From contig NZ_CP015124.1 of NCBI RefSeq assembly GCF_001678945.1, positions 2,642,001 to 2,706,000 on the forward strand: DNA of 64,000 nt. Reading direction: 5' to 3'. The stretch comes from Phaeobacter gallaeciensis. GTDB taxonomy: Bacteria > Pseudomonadota > Alphaproteobacteria > Rhodobacterales > Rhodobacteraceae. Below are positions 1 through 22,135 of this stretch, piece by piece. A model generated the notes under the pieces. The model did not search any database. It was not told where the DNA came from and was given only the letters and a program-made list of their open reading frames with translations. The translations under genes were made by a program, and so were the position numbers. Each line of letters opens with the position of its first letter. Positions within the stretch are counted from its first letter, which is position 1.

Positions 1-255
1 ATCAGCGATCGCCTGTTGCATGGCGATATGGGCATAGGCAGCCCCTGGCCCCATGAAGCGCAGGGTGCGCTTGTCCACATGTTCGGCAGGATCGATTTTC
101 AGCGTGCCGGCCACCTGGCTGCGAAAGCCGTGTTCGGCCATTTCAGGGCTGGCTACGATACCGGATTTCCCGGCCTTGAGCGATGCAAGAACCTCTTCGG
201 CTGTGTTGCCGATCGAGGAGACGATGCCAAGACCGGTGACGACGACGCGACGCAT
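1..255 (-). CDS. fabB: Beta-ketoacyl-ACP synthase I, N-terminal part (cut by window edge)
   Basis: The first 85 codons are visible and read MRRVVVTGLGIVSSIGN, the typical start of a KAS I/II enzyme, followed by a stretch ending in RFMGPGAAYAHIAMQQAIAD as in FabB. The enzyme elongates acyl-ACP with malonyl-ACP in cytoplasmic fatty-acid synthesis, including the unsaturated branch begun by FabA. The active-site Cys and His lie beyond the window edge and cannot be checked. The start ATG is preceded by AGGGAGTG. In relatives fabB directly follows fabA; here a DUF4062 gene separates them, so fabB may need its own promoter in the 159 bases upstream. The assignment is secure, although KAS II cannot be fully excluded from the fragment. 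Confidence 0.9.
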   Translation of the reverse strand, partial: MRRVVVTGLGIVSSIGNTAEEVLASLKAGKSGIVASPEMAEHGFRSQVAGTLKIDPAEHVDKRTLRFMGPGAAYAHIAMQQAIAD

Positions 256-414
256 AGGTGCACTCCCTTAATAGCTTTTGTCTTACTAGGCCGTGCAGGG
301 CATGGGTGCAAGATGGGTTGGGGGGGGTGAGCGAGAGCAAGAACCAGATCTTAGCGAGGCCGGTGCCGGGTAAGTTCCTTAAACAGTCTAACGGTGTTGC
401 GGGACATTCCGCCA

Positions 415-1629
415 TCACTGGAGCGTTTCATGGTCGGATCCTACAGACAAAATCGCGGCCAGTGCCGTATCAACACTCTTTGATGCGTCCGACAGAAAGT
501 CCAAGAGATCAATCGTTGCTGCACGTACGCGCCGCTTGCCTTGGTTAAGCTTGGAAGTCATTCTAGGTATTGATGTTATTGATTCCTGAAAACTGGAGAC
601 TTGTCCGTGAACGGTGTTCAAAACTGATTTAATAGAGGTAAGTTCGCGAGTAAGTCCTGTTATATCCTGCTGGTTGCTCAGACCATCCTGGCTTGAGATC
701 AGGATCGCATGTTGCATTCCGCTTATGGCTGAGGAAAAGTAACGCCTCGCATCCGGAATGCGAGTGTCAAGAACCCCCGCATACCGCTGCATTTCGTTTG
801 CTGTTTCCTCTATTATTGCTTTGGCCACCCTCTGATCTCTGCGAGCGTCTCCGGTGGATTGCAGATTTTCTATTTCACTTGTTTTGTCTGTTAAGTGAAG
901 GCCAAATGCCTCAGTTTCTTGGGCCATAGTATTCAGCGTGTCTGTGAAGTTATCGAGTGCCTCAAAAACAATTTCGGATAAATCAAACAGGCCAATGTCT
1001 TCATCGAACAAAATTGGCTCACTTTCGGAGTTCGCCGTATCCGAAATGCCGTTCTTTTCGGTGGTCTCAGGAGCGTTGGGTGAGTTTTCAATCGCGTCGG
1101 CGTGAGCAAGGCGATCTATTGCTTGCGTCAGTGCGGCTACTACGAGAGTCTTTAAGCTATCGTGGCTGTCAAAGTCACTGTAGATTCCGAGGCTGCTGAT
1201 TTTCTCCTTGAACTCAGCTACCTTCAAAAACTGTTCTGCTTCTATGGGAGCTTCTGATTTTCTCGGGTCTTTGAAGTACATTAAAATTTCTGGACCGTTT
1301 TTTCCGTTCTTTTTTCTGCCGTAGGCGTTAAAGAACTCTTCTTCCGTTCCTGACTTGTATTTCTCGGTTTCTCTCCCGAAACGGCTGCACAGTATTCCGA
1401 TGAATATGTCATATTCATCGCCGACTTGAGTGTTGATTATTTCTTGTGGGTGATTTCCAATTTGTGAAACCACGTTTTGTTCCCAGCGGATAGGCCTAAG
1501 TAAAAATCCTGATTTTAAGCCGGTAACTTGGTTGACTAGATCCAAGGCATCCTGAACTACGTCGCGTTCCGCAGAAACATCAGATGGGGAGGAGATAAAT
1601 ACTTCGTAAATTTTTATGTCTTTTGCCAT
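415..1629 (-). CDS. DUF4062-domain protein, possible TIR-like signalling or defence protein
   Basis: A 404-residue protein. Residues 8-100 carry the DUF4062 pattern: YEVFISSPSDV near 8-18, RPIRWE at 45-50, DIFIGILCSRFG at 74-85 and SGTEEEF at 93-99. DUF4062 is related to TIR/SEFIR-like folds and often sits at the N-terminus of STAND-type or other conflict-system proteins. Here it is followed by an acidic linker (about 190-220) and a long helical, probably coiled-coil C-terminus (220-400), without a visible NTPase or nuclease domain. The start has a good AAGGTG site. The gene is AT-richer than both neighbours and splits fabA from fabB, which points to acquisition by transfer. The biochemical activity is not known; a role in phage defence is inference only. 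Confidence 0.75.
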   Translation of the reverse strand: MAKDIKIYEVFISSPSDVSAERDVVQDALDLVNQVTGLKSGFLLRPIRWEQNVVSQIGNHPQEIINTQVGDEYDIFIGILCSRFGRETEKYKSGTEEEFFNAYGRKKNGKNGPEILMYFKDPRKSEAPIEAEQFLKVAEFKEKISSLGIYSDFDSHDSLKTLVVAALTQAIDRLAHADAIENSPNAPETTEKNGISDTANSESEPILFDEDIGLFDLSEIVFEALDNFTDTLNTMAQETEAFGLHLTDKTSEIENLQSTGDARRDQRVAKAIIEETANEMQRYAGVLDTRIPDARRYFSSAISGMQHAILISSQDGLSNQQDITGLTRELTSIKSVLNTVHGQVSSFQESITSIPRMTSKLNQGKRRVRAATIDLLDFLSDASKSVDTALAAILSVGSDHETLQ

Positions 1630-1824
1630 ATTTCACCTTATGGTATAGTGATGATTCTTTTTAAGTGGTCGTCTCGACATTCACAAGTCACACCGACGTT
1701 GGGACGTATTCAGGGCGGCTGTGTCAACGCTCAGAGTGTCGCTTCTGCTCGTCTTACCGGTGTCTGGGTTTTGTATTTGGTTGTGGCCTTCCGGTCCCCA
1801 AGCTGGCTGAGCGTGTACTTTTCC

Positions 1825-1850
1825 AAAAAAAAGAGGCCCCGCGGGGCCTC
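1825..1850 (-). terminator. Intrinsic terminator downstream of fabA
   Basis: A perfect self-complementary GAGGCCCC/GGGGCCTC stem (1833-1850) is followed, reading leftward, by eight U (the A-run at 1825-1832). It should end fabA transcription before the DUF4062 gene, so fabB is probably no longer co-transcribed with fabA. Confidence 0.85.
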
Positions 1851-1895
1851 CTGATCGTCTAACCTGATTGTGACTGGGGTCAGCCGTCGCGGGCC

Positions 1896-2405
1896 TCAGC
1901 CCTCGCTCAGAACCACCCGCATGTCCTTGACCTGATAGATCTCTTCGCCATCGGCCTCCACCGTGCCGTCGGCAACGCCCATGGTCAGGCGGCGGGTCTG
2001 CATCGCCTTTTTGAAATCCACCTTGTAGGTCAGCATCTTGCGGTCGGGGCGGACCATGCCGGTTAGCTTCACTTCGCCGACGCCCACGGCCATGCCCCGG
2101 CCCTTCCAGCCGCGCCAGCCGAGGTTAAAGCCGGTGAGCTGCCACAACCCGTCCAGACCCAGACAACCGGGCATGATCGGGTTGCCGGGGAAGTGGCATT
2201 CGAAGAACCACAGGTCCGGGGTGATGTCGAATTCCGCAAGGATGTGGCCCTTGCCGTGGCTGCCGCCGTCGGCGCTCACTTCGGTGATGCGGTCCATCAT
2301 CAGCATCGGCGGCGCGGGCAGCTGGGCATTGCCCGGGCCGAACAGCTCGCCTCGGGCGCATTTCAGCAAATCTTCTTTGTCAAAGCTGCTCGGGTAGTCG
2401 GCCAT
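1896..2405 (-). CDS. fabA: 3-hydroxydecanoyl-ACP dehydratase/isomerase
   Basis: A 169-residue protein, normal FabA length. The start chosen is MADYPSSF; longer versions would run into the upstream regulatory region. The hot-dog-fold signature [17 protein letters not shown] places the catalytic His at 71 and Asp at 85. FabA dehydrates 3-hydroxydecanoyl-ACP and isomerises trans-2 to cis-3-decenoyl-ACP, the entry into unsaturated fatty acids, which FabB then elongates. The gene is divergent from irr, a common alphaproteobacterial arrangement. A strong terminator lies 46 bases past the stop. Confidence 0.95.
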
Positions 2406-2628: not shown

Positions 2629-3057
2629 ATGACGCCAAACAGCGAAGATCTGGCAACCAACTGGCTGGGACAGGCCGGTCTGCGCCCGACCCGGCAACGG
2701 GTGGCGCTGGCTGAACTGCTGGTCGGGGATGGCAAGCATCGCCATGTCACCGCCGAAAGCCTGTTCGAAGCCGCCAAGGACAAGGGCGCGGCCGTGTCGC
2801 TGGCCACCGTCTACAACACGTTGCGCGCCTTTTGCGAGGCGGGCGTGCTGCAGGAGATCACGGTGGACGGGTCGAAAAGCTATTTCGACACCAACACCCA
2901 TGACCACCCGCATTACTACTGGGAGCAGGAAGGCCGCGTCAGCGATGCGCCCTCGGATCAGCTGGTGATCCAGAGCCTGCCCGAGGCGCCCGAAGGCATG
3001 GAGATCGCATCGGTCGATGTGGTGGTCCGCCTGCGCAAGAAGGCCGATCACGGCTGA
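2629..3057 (+). CDS. irr: Irr-type iron response regulator, Fur superfamily
   Basis: A 142-residue Fur-superfamily repressor. The N-terminal winged helix includes [14 protein letters not shown] and [12 protein letters not shown], the DNA-recognition region; the dimerisation part contains [16 protein letters not shown], the His-rich segment typical of Irr rather than Fur. In alphaproteobacteria Irr responds to haem status and controls iron and haem genes by binding ICE boxes. It is divergent from fabA across 223 bases. The stop codon region overlaps the convergent LysR gene by 10 bases. No clear ICE box was recognised by eye in the intergenic region. The family assignment is firm; the split into Irr subgroups is not. 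Confidence 0.9.
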
Positions 3058-13272: not shown

Positions 13273-13337
13273 CTGCTCAACCTCTGGCCGGTAAAAGCAT
13301 TGACGACAACCGTCTTCCCACGTAGGTAGTTTCGGTT

Positions 13338-13385
13338 CCTCCCACAACGGCTTCCTGGCGTGGCGAGGCGAAACCAAATGGAGCA
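13338..13385 (+). promoter_or_regulatory. SAM/SAH riboswitch before metK
   Basis: The RNA reads CCTCCCAC, AACGGCTTCC, TGGC, GTGGCGAGG, then a linker and TGGAGCA. CCTCCCAC (13338-13345) pairs with GTGGCGAGG (13360-13368, one bulged base) to form P1, and CTTCC in the loop (13351-13355) can pair with the GGAG Shine-Dalgarno at 13380-13383 to make the pseudoknot. Core CACAACGGCTTCCTGGCGTG and downstream TGGAGCA match the SAM/SAH riboswitch known upstream of metK in Rhodobacterales. Ligand binding should hide the ribosome site eight bases before the metK ATG and so repress synthesis of SAM synthetase. Confidence 0.9.
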
Positions 13386-13391
13386 CTTTTC

Positions 13392-14573
13392 ATGACCCGC
13401 AAGCACTATATTTTCACTTCGGAATCCGTTTCCGAGGGCCACCCGGATAAGGTCTGTGACCGGATTTCCGATGCCGTTCTGGACGCCTTTCTGGCGGAAG
13501 AGCCAGAAGCGCGTGTCGCGGCAGAGACCTTTGCCACAACCAATCGCGTTGTGATCGGGGGCGAGGTGGGTCTGTCCGACCAGGACAAACTGCACGATTA
13601 CATGGGCAAGATCGACGAGATCGCCCGCGCCTGCATCAAGGACATCGGCTACGAGCAGGACAAGTTCCACCACGAGACCGTGGAAATCACCAACCTGCTG
13701 CATGAACAGTCCGCTCATATCGCGCAGGGTGTCGATTCGGCCGAGAACAAGGACGAAGGTGCTGGCGACCAAGGCATCATGTTCGGCTTTGCCACCAATG
13801 AAACCGACGCGCTGATGCCCGCGCCGATCCAGTTCAGCCACGCGATTCTGCGCCGCCTTGCCGAAGTGCGCAAGAACGGCACCGAACCTGCACTGGGTCC
13901 CGATGCCAAATCGCAGCTGTCCATCAATTATGAGAACGGCAAGCCGGTGGGCGTCAACTCGCTGGTGCTGTCGACCCAGCATCTGGACGAGTCGCTGACA
14001 TCCGACGATATCCGCCAGATCGTGGAACCCTATATCCGCGAGACCCTGCCCGAGGGCTGGCTGACCGCAGAAACCATCTGGCACGTAAACCCGACCGGCA
14101 AGTTCGTGATCGGCGGCCCCGATGGCGATGCCGGCCTCACCGGCCGCAAGATCATCGTCGACACCTATGGCGGTGCGGCCCCGCATGGCGGCGGCGCTTT
14201 CTCGGGCAAGGATCCGACCAAGGTTGACCGTTCGGCGGCCTATGCTGCGCGCTATCTGGCCAAGAACGTCGTTGCCGCTGGGATGGCCGACAAATGCACC
14301 ATCCAGCTGTCTTATGCGATTGGCGTGTCTCAGCCGTTGTCGATCTATGCTGACACCCACGGCACCGGCGACGTCGCGCCTGAGGCGATTGAAAAAGCCA
14401 TTGGTCAGGTGATGGATCTCAGCCCGCGCGGCATCCGCTCGCATCTGGGCCTCAACAAGCCGATCTATCAGCGCACCGCAGCCTATGGTCACTTTGGCCG
14501 CGAACCCGATGCCGATGGCGGCTTCAGCTGGGAACGCACTGATCTGGTCGAGGCGCTGAAAAAGGCCGTCTGA
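13392..14573 (+). CDS. metK: S-adenosylmethionine synthetase
   Basis: 393 residues. Signatures include [12 protein letters not shown] near the N-terminus, the [10 protein letters not shown] hexapeptide region and [19 protein letters not shown]. The enzyme makes SAM from methionine and ATP in the cytoplasm. Its Shine-Dalgarno GGAG is part of the riboswitch pseudoknot, so translation is likely controlled by SAM level. A terminator follows the stop, so the gene is a single transcription unit or the end of the lnt operon. Confidence 0.97.
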
Positions 14574-20446: not shown

Positions 20447-20581
20447 GTTCTGGGGCATGGAAAGGTGACAGTCCGGAGCGTGGGTTAGTAAAATTCCACG
20501 CAATCTCCTTTTGGTTGTAGTGATGTCTAAATGTCTTTGGTTGAGACTGCAGCGAACGAATTCAGCTTCAGGAGTAGAGAC

Positions 20582-22135
20582 ATGACCACATTTTCCGGCC
20601 TTTCTATTGTCAATAATTCCGCCCTTACACTGATTAATGCCTCAGCCAGCGACAGGGGCGCTCAGGCCCGGGTCGAATCGGGTGATCAAGGGACGGCCTG
20701 GGGCGTGGACAGGCTGAACACCATTGCGAAAGCAGAGAATGACTATCAAGCTGAGAAACTCCAAACCGGGATAGATACCCGGAAAAAATTAAACGCCCAA
20801 GACTCAAGCAAGAACAGCGCGGCCCGGAGTAGAATTCTCGCCGAGCATTACCGCAAACTGGCGGCCAATATGGCGGCGGCCCTCGACAAACTTGGCGGTC
20901 AGAGCCGATCTTCTGCCGGAACAGTTGTCGCCTTGTTCAAGACCCCGGACTCCGATGCGCTAAGCATTGTTAGCGGCAAAACCGTCAGAAATGTTTCCTC
21001 CCAAAATGAAGCCTCTTTTGCCATTCGTGCCAGCACAGTTAAGGGGGTTTACACGCGAGGTGGGAATGATGCCATCAGTATTGAAGCTGATTGGGTGGAA
21101 TCCGTATACACAGATCGAAGTAGCGGCCTACACGCCAAGAAAACCAAATCTGGCGATACTGTACTCGGATGGCACTCAAAAACAGTCAGCAATGATGCGG
21201 TCGCCATCAAGGCCAAGCGCGTAAGTAGTGTGTACACCAAAGGCGGCAATGATGCGATTGCGATCGAAACCGACTTGGTGAAGGCCGTCTATGCGGGCGA
21301 GGGGAGCGATTCCGTAGCAATTCGCGCTGGGGTTGTAAATGGTGTATACAGCGGCGATGGCCATGACACCATATCCGTTGATGCTGGAATTGGTGGGACA
21401 GCCGTAACGAAGTTCGGAGCCACCTATATAGGGATCTCCGAAGTTACCAGCTATACCCGAGCAGGAACGGCGGAGGAACGCGTAAAGCAGGCAAGACTGG
21501 GCTATGCGCAGAGAGCGGATATCAACGCAGGGGCAGGGGATGATTTCATTTCAGTCACGGTTGAGGAAGCCCTGACGATTGATGGTGGTACTGGCAATGA
21601 TACCATTGCGATTGGCGGTGGAACTGTCGGGATGAGTGTTCGATTTGACTCAGGCCATGACACCGTTCAGGTGGCGCGCGGCGCCGAATTCGTACTGCGG
21701 GTCGAAGAAAATGGCCCGTATACTGTGAAGAAAGACGGAAACGACCTGATCGTTACGCACGCCGGTGGGTCAGTAACAATCAAAGACTATGAACAGGCTT
21801 CGGCAATTGCCGTAAGAGGCAGATATGCGGCAAGTGAAGACGAAATTAATGACCTGCTCAGTCCTGAGGAAGCCCAGCGAACTATCGCTTTTGGTGCTGA
21901 ACAGAAAGCCAAGCTGCGGGAGGAGCGTACGGCCAAGATTGAGAGTTTTGTGGCTGATGGTGATACCATGGAGCTCGCCAAGAAAAGCATCGATATTCCC
22001 GAGCGCGTCACTGTGCCAAAGGACGCGGATGCGCAGCCGAGGCGCTGGGAAGATACTCTGTCTTCCCCGCCAATGGCATATGGTATTGTGATGTTTCATC
22101 TGGACCCCAAGGAACCTGTCGATCAGAAGATTTGA
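20582..22135 (+). CDS. Repeat-rich, RTX-like or beta-helical protein, probably acquired
   Basis: 517 residues from the ATG that has AGGAG seven bases upstream (20570-20574); an earlier ATG at 20531 lacks one. Residues about 135-270 contain a degenerate 20-24-residue unit of the form GGNDAI-x-I-x(3)-V-x-x-VY (for example GGNDAIAIETDLVKAVYAG), and a later GGTGNDTIAIGGGT resembles a single RTX turn. There is no Sec signal; type I export is possible. A helical, charged N-terminus (to about 120) and C-terminus flank the repeats. The gene is AT-richer than rpsA and ihfB, between which it lies. I do not recognise a described family. Confidence 0.7.
   Translation: MTTFSGLSIVNNSALTLINASASDRGAQARVESGDQGTAWGVDRLNTIAKAENDYQAEKLQTGIDTRKKLNAQDSSKNSAARSRILAEHYRKLAANMAAALDKLGGQSRSSAGTVVALFKTPDSDALSIVSGKTVRNVSSQNEASFAIRASTVKGVYTRGGNDAISIEADWVESVYTDRSSGLHAKKTKSGDTVLGWHSKTVSNDAVAIKAKRVSSVYTKGGNDAIAIETDLVKAVYAGEGSDSVAIRAGVVNGVYSGDGHDTISVDAGIGGTAVTKFGATYIGISEVTSYTRAGTAEERVKQARLGYAQRADINAGAGDDFISVTVEEALTIDGGTGNDTIAIGGGTVGMSVRFDSGHDTVQVARGAEFVLRVEENGPYTVKKDGNDLIVTHAGGSVTIKDYEQASAIAVRGRYAASEDEINDLLSPEEAQRTIAFGAEQKAKLREERTAKIESFVADGDTMELAKKSIDIPERVTVPKDADAQPRRWEDTLSSPPMAYGIVMFHLDPKEPVDQKI
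20990..21400 (+). repeat. Degenerate coding repeats of the VY/GGNDAI type
   Basis: At least five units, each about 60-72 bases, encode alternating VxxVY and NDAIxI/SDSVAI/HDTISV blocks. The units differ in most third positions, so they are an old protein-level repeat, not a recent tandem DNA duplication. Confidence 0.65.

What the first reader, a model, noticed from the sequence alone, without database searches (positions are those of the whole stretch)
415..1850. DUF4062 gene and terminator inserted between fabA and fabB
fabA and fabB are normally adjacent behind irr. Here an AT-richer DUF4062 gene lies between, with the fabA terminator in front. The protein joins DUF4062 to a long helical tail with no NTPase, an uncommon simple layout. 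Lone DUF4062 genes in variable spots are candidate conflict-system effectors.
Basis: partly seen in the sequence, partly recalled or inferred. Interest (0 to 1): 0.6.

Follow-up and report, generated by a model that had tools for sequence, protein, structure and literature searches.

The report
Swappable antiphage NADase gene between fabA-fabB
Between two fatty-acid synthesis genes of a marine bacterium sits a single foreign gene that probably kills phage-infected cells by destroying NAD+, and its relatives keep different genes, several of them defence-like, in the same slot.

Summary
A lone 404-aa DUF4062 gene (415-1629, minus; GC 45.7%, GC3 46.7%) lies between fabA and fabB, behind fabA's terminator. 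DUF4062 was identified in 2026 as a TIR-like NADase domain, the killing part of the Swarozyc abortive-infection system (PMC13174449, preprint). By profile the domain matches the solved Swarozyc protein KpSwz (E 3.7e-20) and human TEP1 (E 8e-6). Its Glu98 aligns with both catalytic glutamates and is kept in every relative with a residue there. The helical tail is not KpSwz's portal-binding domain as far as sequence shows, so the trigger is unknown.

The bigger finding is the site. In 80 named Roseobacteraceae loci plus two genus mates, fabA-fabB is either a tight operon (21-60 nt) or split by 0.4-8 kb of cargo that is nearly always different. In the window's clade the slot lies between fabA's terminator and a conserved promoter-like box before fabB. 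Homology to sister genomes stops within about 20 bp of the same two points. All four genomes of this genus differ in cargo: DUF4062, a caspase-like protein, an AAA ATPase, and a PD-Lambda-5-like fragment. One Cognatishimia locus is a natural empty slot. Elsewhere the cargo is mixed. Phage defence is untested.

The parts
415..1629 (-). DUF4062 (TIR-like NADase) protein, 404 aa, single gene
   Evidence: ORF; Pfam PF13271; PADLOC PDC-S60 N-terminal match E 2.5e-39; profile match to KpSwz E 3.7e-20 and TEP1 E 8e-6
1096..1629 (-). DUF4062/TIR-like domain, residues 1-178
1336..1338 (-). codon of Glu98, predicted catalytic glutamate (KpSwz E97 / TEP1 E1008 equivalent)
   Evidence: alignments; E in 33 of 34 sequences, the other a gap; invariant in A3
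418..996 (-). helical tail, residues 212-404, putative sensor/oligomerisation part with conserved PR(MA)xSxLNxAKRR motif
   Evidence: alignments; helices in the low-confidence AF2 model; no solved relative
1634..1639 (-). ribosome-binding-site-like AAGGTG before the DUF4062 ATG
   Evidence: read directly
1824..1852 (-). fabA intrinsic terminator (stem GAGGCCCCGCGGGGCCTC plus T run), left edge of the slot
   Evidence: same stem in sisters and a similar one in empty site L093
283..312 (-). conserved promoter-like box of fabB, CTTGCACC...CCTAGTAA with 17-nt spacing, right edge of the slot
328..1822 (.). cargo segment: about 1.5 kb without counterpart in any sister genome
   Evidence: homology with G295, G296 and G297 ends at 1823-1827 on one side and 321-327 on the other
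1896..2405 (-). fabA
   Evidence: Pfam FabA E 2.7e-44
1..255 (-). fabB, 5' part, continues outside the window
   Evidence: ketoacyl-synt; full 409 aa in L043

Best explanation
The gene encodes a self-contained abortive-infection effector of the Swarozyc kind. In an infected cell the helical tail recognises a phage product or assembles on it, which aligns the DUF4062 domains; these then hydrolyse NAD+ using Glu98, so the cell stalls or dies before phage are released. The gene is one of many interchangeable cargoes of a chromosomal slot between fabA and fabB. In this clade the slot is bounded by fabA's terminator and fabB's own promoter, so a cargo can be inserted or replaced by recombination in the flanking core genes without disturbing fatty-acid synthesis. 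Shown here: gene, domain, catalytic-residue alignment, foreign composition, slot boundaries, cargo variability. Taken from the literature: NADase and antiphage activity of DUF4062 proteins. Inferred: that this protein is active, what triggers it, and exchange by homologous recombination, perhaps with gene transfer agent particles.
For: Domain: Pfam DUF4062; KpSwz 10wc_A E 3.7e-20 and human TEP1 11gz_A E 8e-6 by a 15-sequence profile. Glu98 aligns with the alanine that replaces E97 in the KpSwz E97A construct and with the TEP1 Glu at chain position 115, which fits E1008 if the 220-residue chain is 894-1113; it is kept in 33 of 34 sequences, the other being a gap. Literature: KpSwz needs E97 and its auxiliary domain for defence and depletes NAD+ on infection (PMC13174449). 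Mobility: 10 of 295 family genomes have any relative and 5 have the full-length form; the four other family copies sit alone between unrelated core genes (beside clpB, rimO, hisD, thyX) with GC 0.43-0.47 in GC-richer surroundings. A full-length match also lies in another class. Slot: 31 tight operons, 35 occupied and 10 short gaps among 76 loci. Homology to three genus mates ends at 1823-1827 and 321-327. The fabB box occurs in 38 of 42 split loci against 27 of 7400 random stretches. Genus mates carry a caspase-like protein (PF00656 E 5.7e-14), an AAA ATPase, and a PD-Lambda-5_A-like fragment (E 7.5e-32) in the same slot.
Against: No activity or phage test exists for this protein. Its tail has no detectable similarity to the KpSwz portal-binding domain: the KpSwz match ends near residue 204 and the tail profile finds nothing significant. 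The single-sequence structure model is poor (pLDDT 45), so the TIR fold rests on sequence profiles. There are no defence genes next to it, and the slot's cargo across the family is mostly not defence. Human NWD1, NWD2 and NPHP3 contain DUF4062 yet showed no NADase activity in the same preprint, so the domain alone does not guarantee catalysis.
Confidence: 0.72

Rival explanations
1. A DUF4062 NADase controlled by a host signal such as stress or envelope damage rather than by phage; a regulatory or programmed-death enzyme whose tail senses a cellular state.
For: The tail differs from the known phage-portal sensor. Other Roseobacteraceae fuse DUF4062 to a HisKA plus receiver module, so DUF4062 can be wired to other inputs. 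The slot also carries many non-defence genes.
Against: Patchy distribution, low GC and a different location in each genome look like a defence gene rather than a housekeeping regulator. The other cargoes in the genus are mostly defence-like.
Confidence: 0.13
2. A DUF4062 protein that has lost catalysis or acts as a scaffold or decoy, as for human NPHP3 or NWD1, with another function.
For: Several human DUF4062 proteins showed no NADase activity (PMC13174449).
Against: Glu98 and the surrounding SGTxxEF motif are conserved in every close relative; the reading frame is intact.
Confidence: 0.08
3. The cargo is neutral foreign DNA caught in a tolerant gap, and the defence-like content of the genus is chance.
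For: Family-wide the slot takes anything, including alkaline phosphatase, DMSP lyase, aldehyde dehydrogenase and nuclease-like genes.
Against: The open reading frame keeps a conserved architecture and active site at 45-49% identity to full-length relatives elsewhere, which means selection on the protein somewhere.
Confidence: 0.07

Closest known systems
Swarozyc (KpSwz), DUF4062 NADase antiphage protein, Klebsiella pneumoniae (PMC13174449; PDB 10wc, 11cq, 11cv)
   Same: Single protein; N-terminal DUF4062/TIR-like domain with the catalytic Glu, then a C-terminal auxiliary part; no NTPase; patchy horizontally moved gene.
   Different: Tail is about 190 aa and predicted helical, with no detectable similarity to the HTH/winged portal-binding KpSwz auxiliary domain; not next to known defence genes; trigger unknown.
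PADLOC candidate PDC-S60
   Same: N-terminal 170 residues match at E 2.5e-39.
   Different: The PDC-S60 profile is 906 positions long; the remaining roughly 730 are absent here.
TEP1 DUF4062 domain (human vault protein; PDB 11gz)
   Same: TIR-like NADase domain with the catalytic Glu aligned.
   Different: TEP1 is a large NACHT-WD40 protein; shared domain only.
Core defence hotspots of Pseudomonas aeruginosa, cDHS1/cDHS2 (PMC10250203)
   Same: Variable immune genes between fixed core genes, occupied in most isolates.
   Different: The fabA-fabB slot holds mostly 0.4-8 kb (cDHS medians 26 and 6 kb), lies between a terminator and a promoter where relatives have an operon, and its cargo is mostly not defence family-wide.

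Membership tests
DUF4062 / TIR-like NADase family | Sequence match to the DUF4062 profile over the curated cut-off | tested here: met
   37.7 bits against 24.7
DUF4062 / TIR-like NADase family | Catalytic glutamate equivalent to KpSwz E97 / TEP1 E1008 | tested here: met
   Glu98 in profile alignments, conserved in 33 of 34 sequences, the other a gap
DUF4062 / TIR-like NADase family | TIR-like beta-alpha fold | tested here: inconclusive
   AF2 on the single sequence gave pLDDT 45; support is only by profile match to solved KpSwz and TEP1
DUF4062 / TIR-like NADase family | NAD+ hydrolysis | not testable with these tools
   needs an enzyme assay
Swarozyc antiphage system | DUF4062 plus non-NTPase C-terminal auxiliary domain in one protein | tested here: met
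   only DUF4062 over a curated Pfam cut-off in the 404 aa; conserved tail in relatives
Swarozyc antiphage system | HTH/winged portal-binding auxiliary domain as in KpSwz | tested here: not met
   KpSwz alignment stops near residue 204; tail profile has no significant solved relative
Swarozyc antiphage system | Abortive infection with NAD+ depletion on phage challenge | not testable with these tools
   needs phage experiments
Core-gene-flanked accessory hotspot | Same core neighbours with different cargo in different genomes | tested here: met
   35 occupied of 76 loci, nearly all different; four of four genus genomes differ
Core-gene-flanked accessory hotspot | Empty site observed | tested here: met
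   L093, 129-bp gap with terminator then promoter box; tight operons in 31 loci
Core defence hotspot | Cargo mainly defence systems | tested here: inconclusive
   defence-like in all four genus members, the AAA ATPase only weakly; family-wide mixed
Integrase or transposon-borne island | Recombinase, terminal repeats or tRNA site | tested here: not met
   no recombinase-like ORF in the 1.5-kb segment, no flanking repeats of at least 14 nt

The most novel reading that the evidence does not exclude
The gap between fabA's terminator and fabB's promoter is an exchange slot in which marine roseobacters swap immune and niche genes by homologous recombination in the flanking core genes, possibly delivered by gene transfer agents. 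The DUF4062 protein in it is a Swarozyc-like NADase with a new class of phage sensor, which must ignore the portal of the host's own gene transfer agent.
Probability: 0.25. Interest if true: 0.75.

Novelty: new variant of a known kind. Interest (0 to 1): 0.52.

Why it matters
It places a newly recognised family of NADase defence proteins in a marine bacterium with a different sensor, and points to a compact, easily searched place for finding new single-gene defence systems in Roseobacteraceae: the fabA-fabB gap. Because the slot is bounded by a terminator and a promoter, it makes a testable case of how bacteria exchange single genes between essential genes without harming them.

Tried and rejected
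Closest relatives of the full protein in named genomes, viral contigs and phages: none; plasmid hits cover only the DUF4062 domain. Tail fused to other N-terminal effectors: not seen in 295 family genomes apart from one weak hit. A transposon, integron or island origin was rejected: no repeats and no recombinase. An antitoxin partner was considered and rejected: no credible second ORF within the 1.5 kb. The idea that the insertion splits a working operon was rejected for this lineage, because terminator and promoter also occur without cargo (L093). A first pattern for the fabB box used the wrong spacing and found nothing. The slot as a pure defence hotspot was rejected at family level. An error of mine: one family search used wrong coordinates and failed.

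Full report
Observation. The window carries fabA (2405-1896, minus), an intrinsic terminator (1852-1831 plus a T run), a 404-aa ORF (1629-415, minus) and the start of fabB (255, minus), with irr divergent at 2629-3057. The ORF matches Pfam DUF4062 at 37.7 bits, above its cut-off of 24.7, and is the only DUF4062 gene of the single-contig 4.06-Mb genome. Its GC is 0.457 and GC3 0.467, against 0.59-0.64 and 0.78-0.85 for neighbouring core genes. No other Pfam or NCBIfam family passes its cut-off. In PADLOC the first 178 residues match candidate PDC-S60 at E 2.5e-39.

What the protein is. A 2026 preprint (PMC13174449) shows that DUF4062 is a TIR-like NADase domain. In bacteria it is the executioner of an abortive-infection system named Swarozyc; the Klebsiella protein KpSwz needs E97 and its auxiliary domain, and is activated by a phage portal protein. 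I built a profile from 15 divergent DUF4062 domains found here. It finds KpSwz (10wc_A, E 3.7e-20) and human TEP1 (11gz_A, E 8e-6) among solved structures. In the KpSwz alignment, Glu98 of our protein lies opposite an alanine at chain position 84. The preprint states that the solved construct starts at residue 15 and carries E97A, so this alanine is most simply the replaced catalytic residue (an offset of 13, one extra residue before position 15). In TEP1, Glu98 lies opposite the Glu at chain position 115; if the 220-residue chain ends at 1113 as in the construct 886-1113, that is E1008, the catalytic residue named in the preprint. Both offsets are my reading of the alignments. Glu98 is kept in 33 of 34 sequences, the other having a gap there. 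A KpSwz-like relative (L163) has the sequence SYTEKEYDYA with Glu at the KpSwz position. I take NADase activity as likely but not shown.

The tail. Residues 212-404 are predicted helical, but the model is poor (pLDDT 45). The tail is shared with full-length relatives G239 (48% overall identity), G053 (44%) and G200 (26%), more weakly with G243 (27%), and with one genome of another class of the phylum (G774, E 3.8e-65 over the full length). A motif around PR(MA)xSxLNxAKRR is invariant or nearly so among four of them. The KpSwz similarity does not reach into it, and the tail profile has no significant solved relative. Membership in DUF4062 is met; identity with the KpSwz type of Swarozyc is not, because its sensor domain is absent. 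'Works like Swarozyc' stands as the best explanation.

Mobility. Any relative occurs in 10 of 295 family genomes and the full-length form in 5. The other four family copies lie alone beside clpB, rimO, hisD and thyX (gene names from reading the neighbouring translations), with GC 0.43-0.47 while the core genes beside them are about 0.6. The gene therefore seems to move as a single unit and land in different places.

The site. I compared the fabA-fabB gap in 80 named loci, of which 74 could be measured, plus the window's genome and genus mate G297: 31 have a gap of 21-60 nt with only a ribosome-binding site, 10 have 77-216 nt, and 35 have 403 nt or more. The state follows the fabA+fabB tree only partly: 13 changes between tight and split against 24 in shuffles, lowest 17, so it has switched repeatedly. 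In split loci a promoter-like box (CTTGCACC, 17-nt spacing, TAcTAA or similar) precedes fabB in 38 of 42 by a relaxed pattern, against 27 of 7400 random stretches of the same loci; none of the 31 tight operons has it, but their gaps are too short to hold it. In the window it lies at 312-283. A GC-rich stem plus T run follows fabA in 16 of 42 split loci by a strict test, including all those near Pseudophaeobacter. The terminator edge is therefore shown for this clade and a few others, whereas the promoter edge is general. The L093 locus (Cognatishimia) has terminator and promoter box with nothing in between: a natural empty site.

Boundaries. Against genus mates G295, G296 and G297, nucleotide homology (83-88%) ends at window 1823-1827 on the fabA side and 321-327 on the fabB side; against L061 and L093 it resumes at 314 and 312. 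The exchanged segment in the window is therefore about 328-1822 and contains only the DUF4062 gene.

Cargo. In the genus: DUF4062 (window); a caspase-like protein (G295, PF00656 E 5.7e-14); an AAA ATPase with a weak PDC-S59 match (G297); and in G296 a convergent PD-Lambda-5_A-like C-terminus (E 7.5e-32) on a contig end, with a chemotaxis receptor on the fabB side. In the wider family: an AbiC/AbiP-like protein (L071), an HNH nuclease (L103), SNase-like genes, PhoX, DMSP lyase, aldehyde dehydrogenase, sulfotransferase, regulators and many unknowns. The slot is thus a general accessory site with a defence-like bias in this genus; four genomes are too few to test that bias.

How cargo might move. 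No repeats and no recombinase mark the segment. Conserved flanks with non-homologous centres fit homologous recombination in fabA and fabB. The genome carries the GTA_TIM gene of a gene transfer agent, and such particles carry short genomic fragments; their involvement is a suggestion only. Because KpSwz is triggered by a portal, whether this protein ignores the portal of the host's own gene transfer agent is a natural question.

Limits. GTDB species representatives were sampled, so within-species swaps were not seen. The 80 loci are those closest in FabA and include draft metagenome genomes. The operon/split labels rest on sequence, not RNA. The organism names are those of the records; I infer the genus Pseudophaeobacter because locus L058 is the same contig stretch as G295. 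The key functional source is a preprint.

Noticed in passing
L008, L009, L010, L012 (genomes G197, G141, G168, G200): Proteins of about 490-540 aa in which a DUF4062 domain with the catalytic Glu follows a response-regulator receiver region; a Pfam scan of the L008 protein confirmed HisKA plus receiver. DUF4062 appears wired to two-component signalling.
   Followed up: partly
L050:5372-6781 (G295, also L058): Caspase-like 469-aa single gene in the fabA-fabB slot of a sister genome, with an unassigned C-terminal half.
   Followed up: partly
L135:10522-11316: A DMSP-lyase-family gene as cargo of the fabA-fabB slot in a Rhodobacteraceae metagenome genome.
   Followed up: no
L071:10619-11485 and L103:10515-11570: AbiC/AbiP-like protein in Shimia marina and HNH nuclease in Mesobacterium in the same slot: further defence-like single genes.
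   Followed up: no
plasmid records NC_006569.1, NZ_CP015231.1, CP038202.1: The fabA region lies on a large secondary replicon in Ruegeria pomeroyi DSS-3 and some Tritonibacter and Paracoccus.
   Followed up: no
window 13336-13385 (+): SAM/SAH riboswitch directly before a gene at 13392 that reads like metK.
   Followed up: no
window 20531-22135 (+): 534-aa protein with internally repeated GGNDAISI-type units, RTX-like by eye.
   Followed up: no
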